Positions 44,219 to 56,645 of a DNA stretch of 64,000 nucleotides are shown piece after piece. The position numbers were made by a program, and so were the translations under genes. The stretch spans positions 116,553 through 180,552 of the forward strand of contig JAPLFY010000031.1 in NCBI GenBank assembly GCA_026390435.1, given 5' to 3'. A model generated the notes under the pieces. The model worked only from the letters and a program-made list of their open reading frames with translations. It did no database searches and had not been told where the DNA came from. The number at the start of each line of letters is the position of its first letter. Within the stretch, counting starts at the first letter, position 1. The stretch is from Pseudomonadota bacterium. GTDB lineage: Bacteria > Bdellovibrionota_B > Oligoflexia > Oligoflexales > CAIYRB01.

Positions 44219-44685
<467 letters not shown>

Positions 44686-51137: not shown

Positions 51138-52319
51138 TCAGAATTCCGCGACATTGATATAGACAGTAGCACTTAGTCTTTGCTCAGTTACACGCACCGT
51201 ACTCGTGGCTGCGAGGTCTACCGCGTACGTGCTGGCTTCGCAAGAGATTAGCCCCAAGTTCAGGTTGATGCCTGCCGATGGGCCCGCATAATTATATCCG
51301 GCGCGCGCTCCAAAAGTTGCGAAGCTGCCAATACCGCCAAGCAGCATCTCGGCCCCGAGTGAGTACTTTTGATTTAATGGCAGACTCTTGTTTTCCAGCT
51401 GATCAATCTTCGCCGCAAAGTTGGCTGTGCCCGAACTCGCAAATCGCGGCGACAGGGAAAAACCAACACTGCTTTGCTGTCTAATAATCAGGTCCGATGC
51501 ACCACCCCTACCCTTAAAACGAGTACCTCCGATGTTCTTTGTAGTCACACCCAAAGTCGGCGCTCCTGAGTTACCAAGTCTCCAGATCAACCCTGCATTA
51601 TCACCGTGACCGAGGTAATCGGCAGAGTAGCCGGCGACGGCGGCGTTACGTCGGCCGCTATCGATAAGTTGGTCGTAGGCTAACGGCCCTAGAACCTCCT
51701 TGCGTGCAGCGTTGTAGCCAAAATATCCGAGCGACATACGCCGACTCGGGTCTTGCACGCTAAAGCCGTAGCCAATTCCGGACATACTTCGGTAGTGAGT
51801 GTCGAGGATGTTGCTCCCCTCCCCACGCGGCACTGCTGCAATCTGGGTGTCGCTGAAAGGGATCACCATGACCCGCTTCATCACGATACCGGCAGCAATA
51901 TTGACCCGGCCGTATTGGCGCAAATTAGCCCGACTGTCGACGGCAGCCTTGCCAACGACAGCATCACTGGAAGCTCCATTTTTTCGCAAATCACTGACAA
52001 GGCTAGTAGCGTTACTATTCGCTGCGGCAGAGATCGCGGGAAAATAAAGCTTCCGGACCCAAGGAGCGTCGTCTTTAACTGGCCCGAGCCCACCGATGCC
52101 GGCTGGGTTTTGAAACGCAGCGTCCACGTTGTCGGCGACTGTGGTGAGCGCACCACCCACACCCTGTGCTCGGACAGATGGTAGGGGATCCTCGTCGATA
52201 ACGCTGTTCACTGTTTGCTGCGCCATTGCATCAGCTAGAGCAGTTGCCGCGAATGGGCAGGCTCCGGGTCCAATGATCCAAGCAAGCTTGAGCATTATAG
52301 TATTGAGGCCACTCCGCAT
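51138..52319 (-). CDS. outer-membrane barrel-like protein
   Basis: A 393-residue secreted protein. The signal peptide, about MLKLAWIIGPGACPFAATAL, follows an 8-residue extension from the ATG at 52319; an ATG at 52295 is an alternative. SVRAQGVGGALTTVADNVDA then AFQNPAGIGGLG resembles the N terminus of FadL-like or PorV/TraF-type barrels in which ...DDAxAxFxNPAGL is conserved. Many short glycine-rich hairpins follow. The last residue is F (YINVAEF), as in outer-membrane barrels. It ends 12 bases before the ccmA start. Confidence 0.65.
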   Translation of the reverse strand: MRSGLNTIMLKLAWIIGPGACPFAATALADAMAQQTVNSVIDEDPLPSVRAQGVGGALTTVADNVDAAFQNPAGIGGLGPVKDDAPWVRKLYFPAISAAANSNATSLVSDLRKNGASSDAVVGKAAVDSRANLRQYGRVNIAAGIVMKRVMVIPFSDTQIAAVPRGEGSNILDTHYRSMSGIGYGFSVQDPSRRMSLGYFGYNAARKEVLGPLAYDQLIDSGRRNAAVAGYSADYLGHGDNAGLIWRLGNSGAPTLGVTTKNIGGTRFKGRGGASDLIIRQQSSVGFSLSPRFASSGTANFAAKIDQLENKSLPLNQKYSLGAEMLLGGIGSFATFGARAGYNYAGPSAGINLNLGLISCEASTYAVDLAATSTVRVTEQRLSATVYINVAEF

Positions 52320-52411
52320 CGCCGCCTGCCCTCCCTGGGGTAGGCCATCGGCAGGACTGCGAAACTCCTTAAGTTTTTAATAATAAATTAATATTTAATT
52401 ATTTATTTCAG

Positions 52412-53263
52412 CTATTTAGGTTTTAACCTTCGGAGGCACGTCAGAGGCAAGTAAACCATAGAATAGCCGTCCGTCTGATGGCATTCAATCCTGCCTGTGT
52501 CTGGATCCTCAGCAGTCCCCTGGTAGGTGTAGCGACACTCTCCCTTATTGATACCCGGCGCGACGGACCCCTTTGGCTGGAAGGCAGATGAGTTCATTTT
52601 ATGCGAGCCATGCCATGAGATGGCCCATACCTTTCGGTCTTCAAAACGATTGGGGGGTTCTTGGTTTTTCACAGCTTCAACATCCTTGGCTACAACAGGA
52701 TCGGGAGCATTTATGGCCGATCCGGGCAACTCATCTTTATCCGGAAAATCGATGGCCCAAGTCTCGCCCGACAACAACGCCACTTCGATGCGGCGACCTG
52801 CCGATGAATTAAAAGCGCGGCAATCCTTGATGAACTTATAATGCGTCGCCGCTTGGTCGGCACCGACAGGCGTCAAAACGGCAGCTCTGTAGGGCGTCTT
52901 CCAAATAAGTTCGGTGCCAAAGTCTCCTTCTCCTGTGAGGACTTCCCAGCGCAGACGACTCAGTCGATCGAGATCCGTTAGCAGAAAGCTCACTTGAGTC
53001 GATTTACAAATTGTGAGGTCGGGAGTGTCCGCAGGACGACGCACCGTGAAACATCTGCCACTTGGCGGATTCACGGTCAAAAATCCTCGCATTAATTGCG
53101 GATCGACTCGCCCGGCATAGTCCCTCACGTCCCGCTCTGATAAGACCAGTTCAGTCCCTGGTGGCGGTACAAAATAATAGCTAAGCTTGCGTATACGCTC
53201 CGAAGCAGGCACCTCACCGCTGAACATCGCCGTCGCGACTAACAGACCAGGCACAAAACTCAT
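52412..53263 (-). CDS. secreted hypothetical protein
   Basis: 283 residues with an N-terminal hydrophobic segment (about 4-18, ending TAMFSG) and a mature part of mixed beta content. Six or more cysteines (for example GRCFTVRR, TICKST, DCRAFN, GECRYTYQG, IECHQTD, LTCLRR) suggest disulfide-stabilised export. Unrecognised. The ATG overlaps the stop of the preceding beta-propeller gene by 4 bases, so the two are coupled. Confidence 0.55.
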   Translation of the reverse strand: MSFVPGLLVATAMFSGEVPASERIRKLSYYFVPPPGTELVLSERDVRDYAGRVDPQLMRGFLTVNPPSGRCFTVRRPADTPDLTICKSTQVSFLLTDLDRLSRLRWEVLTGEGDFGTELIWKTPYRAAVLTPVGADQAATHYKFIKDCRAFNSSAGRRIEVALLSGETWAIDFPDKDELPGSAINAPDPVVAKDVEAVKNQEPPNRFEDRKVWAISWHGSHKMNSSAFQPKGSVAPGINKGECRYTYQGTAEDPDTGRIECHQTDGYSMVYLPLTCLRRLKPK

Positions 53264-54225
53264 GGTGTCACGTCCATAAGATAAGCATCAGTGGTTTTGT
53301 CTATAGTGTAAATAATGCGGTCAGATTTTGGCTGCCACTGCGGCCACCTCTCATCGGAATACTGCGTGGCATTTAGAAAGGGACCGGCACCTTGCATGTC
53401 GGCTAAGCGCAAATCGTAGCCGATAATTTTATTGCCCACCATACGCGCTCCGGCAAACACTATCTTCGGCTGATCTGGATGCCAGCGGGGATCTCGGCCG
53501 TTTGCAATCATAGTTGCCGGTTTACCATTTTGACTTAAATAAACACGGCCCTGATTTGTGGCCCACACTACACTATCGCCGGTTGGGGAAATATCGAAGG
53601 ATTCGATACCAGATCCATCGTCTTCGACTCGGCGCATAGCAAAGCCTCCCTGAGTTAGCCAGAGCATCCCGTGCTGAGTTGCTAACCATTTGCCAAGCTC
53701 AATACGCTGCGCCACTTGCCAACGCGCAAGGCGCTCTCCCGGGAAATAAATTCTTTTTGTCCGAACACCCTTTGGACTTAACAATTGCAGTCTCAAATCC
53801 CGCGGGTCCAAGCTCAGAAAGCCGCTGGCCGTGGCCATTTCATCGAGCAACACACTTTGCACAAGGGCACAGTCAAAGGCTTTCACCATCGTTTTCAGAT
53901 TACCAACGGCATCGAGGACTTGTTCTCGGTAGAAAAGGCGAAAACCGTCCGGAGACCAAACAAAACTGGCACCAACTTGAGCGTCCGTAACTTGGAAAAT
54001 ATTTTTCGTCTTTAAATCTAGCACCGAAAGTCCAAGGCCATTATCACCGATGTAGGCCAGAAACCGCCCTTTAGGGTCAATGCGCAATCTGTTTAGTGCA
54101 TTATCAGCGCGGAGCAGCACCGTTGATTTTGCCGCAATCACAGCAAAAGCATCGCAGCTAAAACTGGCTAGTTGCCCAACGAGGGCCCAAGAGAAGATCA
54201 TTTTGCTGAGTTCATTTAGGCGCAC
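53260..54225 (-). CDS. TolB-like beta-propeller protein
   Basis: A 321-residue exported protein (signal peptide around MIFSWALVGQLASFSCDAFA) with PD40/WD40-type blades: NRLRIDPKGRFLAYIGDNG, QVGASFVWSPDGFRLFYR, GSGIESFDISPTGDSVVWAT, DPRWHPDQPKIVFAG, RWPQWQPKSDRIIYTID. Each has the xxWSPDG-like turn of TolB and related peptidases. It is probably periplasmic, binding a protein partner. It heads an operon with the next secreted protein. No pal or tolR gene is near. Confidence 0.7.
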   Translation of the reverse strand: MRLNELSKMIFSWALVGQLASFSCDAFAVIAAKSTVLLRADNALNRLRIDPKGRFLAYIGDNGLGLSVLDLKTKNIFQVTDAQVGASFVWSPDGFRLFYREQVLDAVGNLKTMVKAFDCALVQSVLLDEMATASGFLSLDPRDLRLQLLSPKGVRTKRIYFPGERLARWQVAQRIELGKWLATQHGMLWLTQGGFAMRRVEDDGSGIESFDISPTGDSVVWATNQGRVYLSQNGKPATMIANGRDPRWHPDQPKIVFAGARMVGNKIIGYDLRLADMQGAGPFLNATQYSDERWPQWQPKSDRIIYTIDKTTDAYLMDVTP

Positions 54226-54409
54226 TTTGGTGCTCCAAGTAACAACGAGAGTTCTAGTTTTCGTGATATATTCAAGCGTAGCGAGGCGGTGGCTATAACC
54301 CTATTATACGCCGAAATTATCCAACAATCCCGGATGCCTCTAAATTATACCTAAATTTATTGCGATTTATGCCGATATATCACTAGGATCGATCACCGGA
54401 GGGTTGTCC

Positions 54410-54751
54410 ATGAAACCGAACGCATTACGAATCGCAGCGATTGCAGCCACTCTGATTGGTTTGCTCAATGCGCATCCGGCCTTGGCCGGTGGCAAAAACG
54501 CCAAGGGATCGACTACGAGCGTCCCTAAAGGGACCAAGGCAAAGCATTTGACTGGTGAAGCCACAATAAAGAGCAAAGATCAAAGTAAAATCGATTTTGA
54601 AGCTGCAGACATCGGCGGTGAACGCAAGTCGCCACTGGGCACAATGATCAACCAAAATAAAGCCGACAAGAACTATGACTTCGTTAAAATTCGTTTGCGC
54701 TGGCACCCCGAGATGGTGCAATCAGCGTCAGCTTTAGACAGCGGCAAGTAA
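54410..54751 (+). CDS. small secreted basic protein
   Basis: 113 residues from the ATG at 54410 (GGAGG at 7 bases; a TTG two codons earlier is less likely). Signal peptide ends LNAHPALA with cleavage near GGKNAKG. The mature part is rich in Lys, Ser and Thr, and ends IRLRWHPEMVQSASALDSGK. Unrecognised; perhaps periplasmic or surface. It converges with the thioredoxin-like gene. Confidence 0.55.
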   Translation: MKPNALRIAAIAATLIGLLNAHPALAGGKNAKGSTTSVPKGTKAKHLTGEATIKSKDQSKIDFEAADIGGERKSPLGTMINQNKADKNYDFVKIRLRWHPEMVQSASALDSGK

Positions 54752-55400: not shown

Positions 55401-56645
55401 ATGACTAAAGAAGAGCTTGCCAACTTATGGCAGTTTCCGTGGCCAGTCATGGACGTGCTTATCGGAGGCAAGTCCTCGATAGACTTGACCGAATTAAATA
55501 TTCAGTCAAATGCTGAGGCCAGCAGCTTTCTGCGCAGCTATGGGTACGATCCTGAAACCCCCGCCGACCGCCGCCTCATTCACAGCGTCCAGGTGGAGGC
55601 GGTCACTTTCATCGAACAGCAGCTACTGCTGCCGAGGGAATGGCAACGGGGGATAAGGCCGCCCGATGAGCTTCTGAATTGTGATGACCCCTGCAAATTG
55701 CTGCTATGGGCCTCTAGTAAGGGCTCTGAAGATAGATGGATCCGGCATTGGGCTTGCGCGGTCTTGCGTGTCATGCACACGATCGCACATCTAGAGGGGG
55801 TCCATCGGACTATTGATATGCAGGCGGCTCGCGCTCAAATATTTTCAAGATTCGAACAACATCTACAGCGCGAATCCGATGGAGATATTTGGTTTGGTGG
55901 TAAAAATGGCCGCGTGGAATTAGCGCAAGTGGAGTGGAAAGAGGCGAAAAGCCGTAATTCTATTATTCTAAAACTCTTGCATAAACGTGATAACGTCGCT
56001 GAAACAATTTACGACTACGTCGGAATCAGACTGATCACAAAAAATCTCTGCGACGTAATGCTCGTGGTAAAACTACTCCATAAATACAATATTATTGTCT
56101 ATCCGAATGCCTATCCGTCACGAGCTCGCAATAATCTAATCGACATCGAACGCTTCCACGAACAAGTTGAGGTACTTCGGCAAGAGCTTTTGTCGGGATC
56201 GCTGACTGCAGCCGATTTTAGTCGAAAACTTGCCAACCTGAATATTGAAGCCTTGCCAGTCGCGCAGACAAGCGGCAACCCCCATTCGTTGTCATCTTAT
56301 CGAGCCATCCAACTTACCAGCCGCCAATTAATTAAAATTCCACATCAAAAGCTAGAATGGTTAACTAAACTGGCACAGGCACAGGCGCCTGGGCAGGCCG
56401 AGCCCAAACTAACCACTGTATTAGCACTCATGAAGGACCTCTTAAAGAACTGGCCGAGCGGAAAAGAAGGACGCTTTGATGCGGCTTTCTTTCCCTTCGA
56501 GGTGCAAATTCTTGATGCCACCTCCCATCAGCACGCTCAATCTGGTGAAGCGAACCATGACCGCTATAAGTCTTCCCAAATTCGAGCCGCTCGCAAGCGT
56601 GTGCTATCCCAGGTGCTTGAGTTCTCCAAAGATGGACCTACGTAA
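55401..56645 (+). CDS. RelA/SpoT synthetase-like protein of unknown function
   Basis: 414 residues from the ATG at 55401 (AGGAG 6 bases upstream). The C-terminal part resembles the ppGpp synthetase fold of RelA/SpoT: SIILKLLHKRD, then TIYDYVGIRLITKNLCDVML (about 202-221; compare the FDLIAIRCV-type core), SSYRAIQL (about 298-305; the stacking tyrosine position of the synthetase GYQSIH block), and FPFEVQILDATSHQHAQSGE (about 364-383) followed by HDRYK. This matches the PIEIQIRT...H...AE...H..YK pattern. No HD hydrolase, TGS or ACT domain is present. An insertion of ~60 residues sits before SSYRA, and the DYI aspartate is not obvious. It may be a new small alarmone-synthetase relative or a nucleotide-binding relic. 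Confidence 0.65.
   Translation: MTKEELANLWQFPWPVMDVLIGGKSSIDLTELNIQSNAEASSFLRSYGYDPETPADRRLIHSVQVEAVTFIEQQLLLPREWQRGIRPPDELLNCDDPCKLLLWASSKGSEDRWIRHWACAVLRVMHTIAHLEGVHRTIDMQAARAQIFSRFEQHLQRESDGDIWFGGKNGRVELAQVEWKEAKSRNSIILKLLHKRDNVAETIYDYVGIRLITKNLCDVMLVVKLLHKYNIIVYPNAYPSRARNNLIDIERFHEQVEVLRQELLSGSLTAADFSRKLANLNIEALPVAQTSGNPHSLSSYRAIQLTSRQLIKIPHQKLEWLTKLAQAQAPGQAEPKLTTVLALMKDLLKNWPSGKEGRFDAAFFPFEVQILDATSHQHAQSGEANHDRYKSSQIRAARKRVLSQVLEFSKDGPT

What the first reader, a model, noticed from the sequence alone, without database searches (positions are those of the whole stretch)
55401..56645. Divergent RelA/SpoT-like synthetase fold in a stand-alone protein
Seen: blocks aligning with the (p)ppGpp synthetase core (IYDYVGIRLI, SSYRAIQL, FPFEVQILDATSHQH...HDRYK) but no HD, TGS or ACT domain, and a ~60-residue insertion before the SYRA block. 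Established: stand-alone synthetases (RelQ/RelP type) and RelA-fold toxins exist. Inference: this is an uncharacterised small-alarmone synthetase, a toxin-like relative or a repurposed nucleotidyl-transferase, beside a cysteine desulfurase and comF.
Basis: partly seen in the sequence, partly recalled or inferred. Interest (0 to 1): 0.7.

Follow-up and report, generated by a model that had tools for sequence, protein, structure and literature searches.

The report
Unstudied RelA-fold enzyme of predatory bacteria
This gene encodes a protein with the core of the bacterial starvation-alarm enzymes (RelA/SpoT); it is kept as a single chromosomal gene by most myxobacteria, Bdellovibrio-type and Oligoflexus-type bacteria, its catalytic residues never vary, but the residues that normally recognise guanosine are changed, so it probably makes something other than, or besides, ordinary ppGpp.

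Summary
ORF 55401-56645 (+) matches Pfam RelA_SpoT above its cutoff (33.9 vs 27 bits) and NCBIfam TIGR04562/TIGR04552 over its full length (E 7e-102, 1e-98). That family is catalogued, but one open-access paper mentions it and none studies it. No HD, TGS or ACT domain was detected. There are two insertions of about 50 residues, not one. The gene is single-copy chromosomal beside a normal ~771-aa Rel. It occurs in most good genomes of six phylum-level lineages (33/39, 128/149, 176/189, 18/18, 5/7, 79/122) but in only 10 of 325 genomes sampled outside its own phylum. In 120 homologues the Rel-type catalytic Asp (D205), Glu (E367) and triphosphate-binding K/S/K are invariant, and the acceptor Tyr is Y or F. 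The guanosine signatures YxSxH and QIR are almost always Yx[SAV]x[QN] and QI[LVMA]D. Best reading: an active, non-toxin, RelA-fold 3'-pyrophosphokinase with a re-specified acceptor; the substrate is unknown. No usable structure model was obtained. Interest lies in a lineage-core, unassayed alarmone-type enzyme; the cysteine desulfurase/comF neighbourhood carries no information.

The parts
55401..56645 (+). TIGR04552/TIGR04562-family stand-alone RelA/SpoT-type synthetase, 414 aa
55390..55394 (+). Shine-Dalgarno-like AGGAG, 6 nt before the ATG
   Evidence: read from sequence
55401..55922 (+). family-specific N-terminal region (residues 1-174), with conserved S25, D28, A104, H126, H130; no similarity to the Rel HD domain or to any Pfam domain
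55947..55985 (+). triphosphate-binding motif K183-x-R185-x-S187-xxx-K191-xxx-K195 (Rel/FaRel2 K-xxx-S-xxx-K)
   Evidence: compare FaRel2 K66/S70/K74 in PMC11782079
56013..56030 (+). D205-x-x-G-x-R210, catalytic Mg-binding Asp and Arg
   Evidence: D and R invariant in 120/120
56133..56276 (+). insertion 1 (residues 245-292), between invariant N244 and N293
56277..56312 (+). acceptor motif N293-P-H-S-L-S-S-Y300-R-A-I-Q304; Q replaces the guanosine-associated His of Rel YxSLH
   Evidence: signature from PMC12226406
56337..56486 (+). insertion 2 (residues 313-362)
56499..56516 (+). E367-V-Q369-I-L-D372, catalytic Glu; L-D replaces the Rel R-T
56544..56600 (+). C-terminal motif G382...H386-xx-Y389-K390...Q393...R400 (Rel GxAAHWxYK plus a family-specific Q and R)

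Best explanation
A chromosomal, vertically inherited, stand-alone RelA/SpoT-fold enzyme that transfers pyrophosphate from ATP to the 3'-OH of an acceptor other than the canonically recognised GDP/GTP (an adenine nucleotide, a broader nucleotide set, or an RNA 3' end). Its N-terminal region and two insertions, found only in this family, would supply acceptor recognition or regulation. It works alongside the ordinary long Rel as a housekeeping or stress regulator, not as a toxin. Shown: the homology, invariant catalytic residues, changed guanosine motifs, distribution and purifying selection. Inferred: activity, the acceptor, and the physiological role.
For: RelA_SpoT match and PDB profile hits. 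K183, S187, K191, D205, R210, E367 and Q369 invariant in 120 homologues, Y300 in 113 with F in the other 7, with K-S-K and D-R spacings identical to FaRel2 (PMC11782079). Rel YxSxH becomes Yx[SAV]x[QN] (H in 2 of 120) and QIR becomes QI[LVMA]D, whereas the genome's own Rel and three canonical SASs of relatives keep YxSLH and QIRT. SxH is described as guanosine-recognising and GxN as typical of (p)ppApp synthetases (PMC12226406). dN/dS about 0.09 in the closest pair. Single-copy core distribution with long Rel in 57/58 genomes of the phylum.
Against: No activity data. The donor-side Arg (FaRel2 R64, RelSeq R241) is also not conserved, so ATP binding may differ. Swapping syn motifs in Apk2 did not change specificity, and SaEAS, which has an Asn (N169) that may occupy the syn3 position, still prefers guanylates (PMC12691689), so the acceptor cannot be read from these motifs. 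Structure models failed (pLDDT 38 and 37).
Confidence: 0.5

Rival explanations
1. An ordinary (p)ppGpp small alarmone synthetase (works like RelP/RelQ) with a drifted guanosine pocket: ATP + GDP/GTP gives ppGpp/pppGpp.
For: Catalytic centre and stacking Tyr/Phe intact. SaEAS, with Asn at what may be the equivalent position, still prefers guanylates. Coexists with a long Rel that could degrade the product.
Against: Both syn3 His and syn4 Arg are lost in a lineage-consistent way (Q+R308 in one subfamily, N+D308 in the other), unlike the canonical SASs found in relatives.
Confidence: 0.22
2. A non-catalytic RelA-fold regulator or binding protein.
For: Donor-site Arg not conserved; the acceptor site is altered.
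Against: Mg-binding Asp and Glu and the phosphate-binding K/S/K are invariant in 120/120 across several phyla; dead relatives normally lose these.
Confidence: 0.1
3. A RelA-fold enzyme doing different chemistry (another nucleotidyl or phosphoryl transfer, e.g. with a non-ATP donor).
For: Changes at both donor Arg and acceptor motifs; two large insertions; an N-terminal region with no known domain.
Against: Phosphate-clamp and Mg residues match pyrophosphokinases in identity and spacing.
Confidence: 0.12
4. A toxSAS-type toxin, or a toxin of a defence or toxin-antitoxin module.
For: Same fold as toxSAS enzymes; not a guanosine-type motif.
Against: Single-copy core gene in several phyla, tree clusters by phylum, no conserved partner gene, no plasmid hit, only a mislabelled 'phage' hit, no PADLOC match better than E 0.02.
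Confidence: 0.05

Closest known systems
NCBIfam TIGR04552 / TIGR04562 ('TIGR04552 family protein')
   Same: Full-length match far above the curated cutoffs (341 vs 140 and 331 vs 125 bits)
   Different: Nothing; it is a member. The family name carries no function
Small alarmone synthetases RelQ/RelP (SasB/SasA)
   Same: Stand-alone SYNTH domain, catalytic Asp/Glu/Tyr, K-S-K phosphate clamp
   Different: About twice as long, N-terminal region without known relatives, two insertions, no guanosine YxSxH/QIR signatures
toxSAS (FaRel2, CapRel-SJ46: tRNA 3'-CCA pyrophosphorylation) and (p)ppApp synthetases (Tas1/Apk1, Apk2)
   Same: SYNTH fold with a non-guanosine acceptor motif; N304 of the myxobacterial subfamily resembles the GxN of Apk2
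   Different: Not in a toxin-antitoxin, secretion or prophage context; core chromosomal gene; Q304 in the window's own subfamily matches neither published motif
SYNTH domain of long Rel/RelA/SpoT
   Same: Three collinear motif blocks
   Different: No HD, TGS, ACT or other regulatory domain found

Membership tests
TIGR04552/TIGR04562 family | full-length match above curated cutoff | tested here: met
RelA/SpoT (RSH) superfamily | SYNTH (RelA_SpoT) domain at a significant score | tested here: met
   33.9 vs 27 bits; 71/72 members
RelA/SpoT (RSH) superfamily | catalytic Mg-binding Asp (RelSeq D264) and Glu (E323) | tested here: met
   D205 and E367 invariant in 120/120
RelA/SpoT (RSH) superfamily | SYNTH three-dimensional fold | tested here: inconclusive
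   two AlphaFold2 jobs with 1-2 sequences gave pLDDT 38 and 37
(p)ppGpp small alarmone synthetase (RelP/RelQ kind) | SYNTH only, no HD/TGS/ACT | tested here: met
(p)ppGpp small alarmone synthetase (RelP/RelQ kind) | guanosine-recognising YxSxH and QIR motifs | tested here: not met
   YRAIQ and QILD; family Q/N and QI[LVMA]D
(p)ppGpp small alarmone synthetase (RelP/RelQ kind) | makes (p)ppGpp | not testable with these tools
   needs enzyme assay
toxSAS / toxin-antitoxin | adjacent neutralising antitoxin or immunity gene | tested here: not met
   no conserved partner in the gene neighbourhoods compared
toxSAS / toxin-antitoxin | toxic when expressed | not testable with these tools
   needs expression test

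The most novel reading that the evidence does not exclude
Myxococcota, Bdellovibrionota-like, Oligoflexia-like and related phyla carry, beside Rel, a second core nucleotide-signalling or RNA-end-modifying enzyme: a housekeeping RelA-fold 3'-pyrophosphokinase with a non-guanosine acceptor (for example making (p)ppApp or a 3'-pyrophosphorylated RNA), used as a physiological signal and not as a weapon.
Probability: 0.3. Interest if true: 0.8.

Novelty: new variant of a known kind. Interest (0 to 1): 0.5.

Why it matters
Adenosine-type and tRNA-type RelA-fold enzymes are described in the papers read here mainly as toxins or exported enzymes. A single-copy core relative in model predators (Bdellovibrio) and social bacteria (myxobacteria), organisms in which starvation signalling matters, would be a physiological member of this kind. 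It is a single non-toxic-looking gene that can be deleted and assayed. One published evolution experiment already holds a clue: a 1-bp deletion in a TIGR04552 gene rose above 75% in one Bdellovibrio line in coculture with prey (PMC9888234).

Tried and rejected
Context as a clue to function: rejected, because downstream genes differ (cysteine desulfurase, Lon-like, ABC/FtsX plus Omp85, FAD/Fe-S) and the arrangement changes between lineages. HD-like N-terminus: rejected (hhalign probability 0.2%). Phage carriage: rejected; the one 'phage' hit, MW495066, encodes FliM, GlyS, SecDF and Smc. Viral contigs: none. Plasmids: none. Papers on RSH enzymes in these lineages gave no study of this family; the 2011 RSH survey names a bdRel group in beta/delta-proteobacteria that I could not compare at sequence level.

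Full report
What is there. The open reading frame at 55401-56645 (+) encodes 414 residues. It starts at an ATG preceded by AGGAG. It matches NCBIfam TIGR04562 (E 7.2e-102, 341 bits, cutoff 140) and TIGR04552 (E 1e-98, 331 bits, cutoff 125) over essentially its full length, and Pfam RelA_SpoT above the gathering score (33.9 vs 27 bits); 71 of 72 family members match RelA_SpoT. Searched singly, the protein has no credible PDB relative, but the family profile finds RelSeq (1vj7, E 4.4e-5), YwaC (6fgk, 3.2e-4) and other Rel/RelA chains. Profile-profile comparison with the long Rel of the same phylum gives three collinear blocks. The one correction is the insertion: spacing is D205-Y300 95 residues and Y300-E367 67 residues in the window protein, with a second insertion as long as the first; both are shorter in the myxobacterial subfamily. 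For Rel the corresponding distances are about 44 and 15 (RelSeq numbering D264, Y308, E323, from memory).

Catalytic residues. In 120 distinct homologues from several phyla, K183, S187, K191, K195, D205, R210, N244, N293, E367, Q369, Y389, K390 and Q393 are invariant; Y300 is Tyr in 113 and Phe in 7. Published structures assign FaRel2 K66, S70 and K74 to the ATP triphosphate, D90 to Mg, R95 to base contact and Y128 to the acceptor base (PMC11782079); the K-S-K and D-R spacings are the same here. What differs is specificity: the Rel motif YxSxH, called guanosine-recognising in PMC12226406, is Yx[SA]xQ in the window's subfamily and Yx[AV]xN in the myxobacterial one, with H in only 2 of 120; QIR is QI[LVMA]D. 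The genome's own Rel (YQSLH, EIQIRT) and three canonical stand-alone synthetases of relatives keep the standard motifs. The donor-site Arg (FaRel2 R64) is not conserved. Caution: converting these motifs in Apk2 did not change specificity, and SaEAS, whose Asn N169 may be the equivalent residue (my inference from spacing), prefers guanylates.

N-terminal region. Residues 1-174 have conserved S25, D28, A104, H126 and H130, no Pfam match and no detectable relation to the Rel HD domain.

Distribution. One copy in the window's genome, which also has a long Rel of about 771 aa. Among good genomes (at least 90% complete, at most 5% contaminated): own phylum 33/39, phylum of G085 128/149, of G110 5/7, of G150 18/18, of G325 176/189, of G304 79/122. 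In a broad sample only 10 of 325 genomes outside the own phylum have a match above cutoff; none of 14 control genomes does. Long Rel is present in 57 of 58 genomes of the phylum. A tree of 73 proteins splits into two deep subfamilies and follows phyla almost perfectly (7 changes, least possible 6), so inheritance is mainly vertical. dN is 0.020 and dS 0.222 against the nearest relative.

Context. Within the genus the order is thioredoxin-like gene (divergent), this gene, cysteine desulfurase, comF-like, mutS in the closest relatives. Elsewhere in the phylum the downstream gene changes (Lon-like, ABC/FtsX plus Omp85, FAD/Fe-S protein), and in other phyla nothing is shared. There is no conserved partner gene, so neither a toxin-antitoxin reading nor a link to the desulfurase is supported. 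No plasmid match, no relative in viral contigs. The only phage-collection match, 'Microcystis phage MaAM05' MW495066, lies between bacterial housekeeping genes and is probably a bacterial chromosome piece deposited as a phage.

Literature. One held paper mentions TIGR04552: in Bdellovibrio sp. NC01 evolved with prey, a 1-bp deletion in DOE51_RS08710 (TIGR04552 family protein) exceeded 75% in line B (PMC9888234). The authors treat such single-base indels as frameshifts; hitchhiking with other mutations of that line is possible. It suggests that the gene is dispensable for predatory growth there, which would fit a regulatory role.

Conclusion. A catalogued but unstudied, lineage-core RelA-fold synthetase, very probably catalytic, probably with a changed acceptor. 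Catalysis is supported by conservation only; the acceptor is open. No three-dimensional model of usable quality was obtained.

Noticed in passing
GenBank MW495066.1 (L062, record 108531-139622): Record named 'Microcystis phage MaAM05, complete genome' (273,876 bases) carries FliM, GlyS, SecDF, GatD, Smc-ScpAB and FabI genes and a TIGR04552 homologue; in the stretch seen it looks like a chromosome fragment of a Bdellovibrio-like bacterium deposited as a phage.
   Followed up: partly
window 51138-54751: Block of four genes (393, 283, 321 and 115 aa) upstream; the three tested (393, 283, 321 aa) have no Pfam match. Their order is kept next to the TIGR04552 gene in many genomes of the phylum.
   Followed up: no
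family-wide, residues 304 and 308 of the window protein: Two deep subfamilies differ together at these positions: Q304 with R308 (window type) and N304 with D308 (myxobacterial type); the phylum of G150 contains both types.
   Followed up: partly
L218, L219, L220 (G016, G030, G032): Further divergent proteins of about 350-395 aa with weak RelA_SpoT matches and EIQVQ or EIQIQ in place of EIQIRT, in some genomes of the same phylum.
   Followed up: no
window 44243-44654 (-): Bacterial RNase P class A RNA (RF00010, 300 bits).
   Followed up: no
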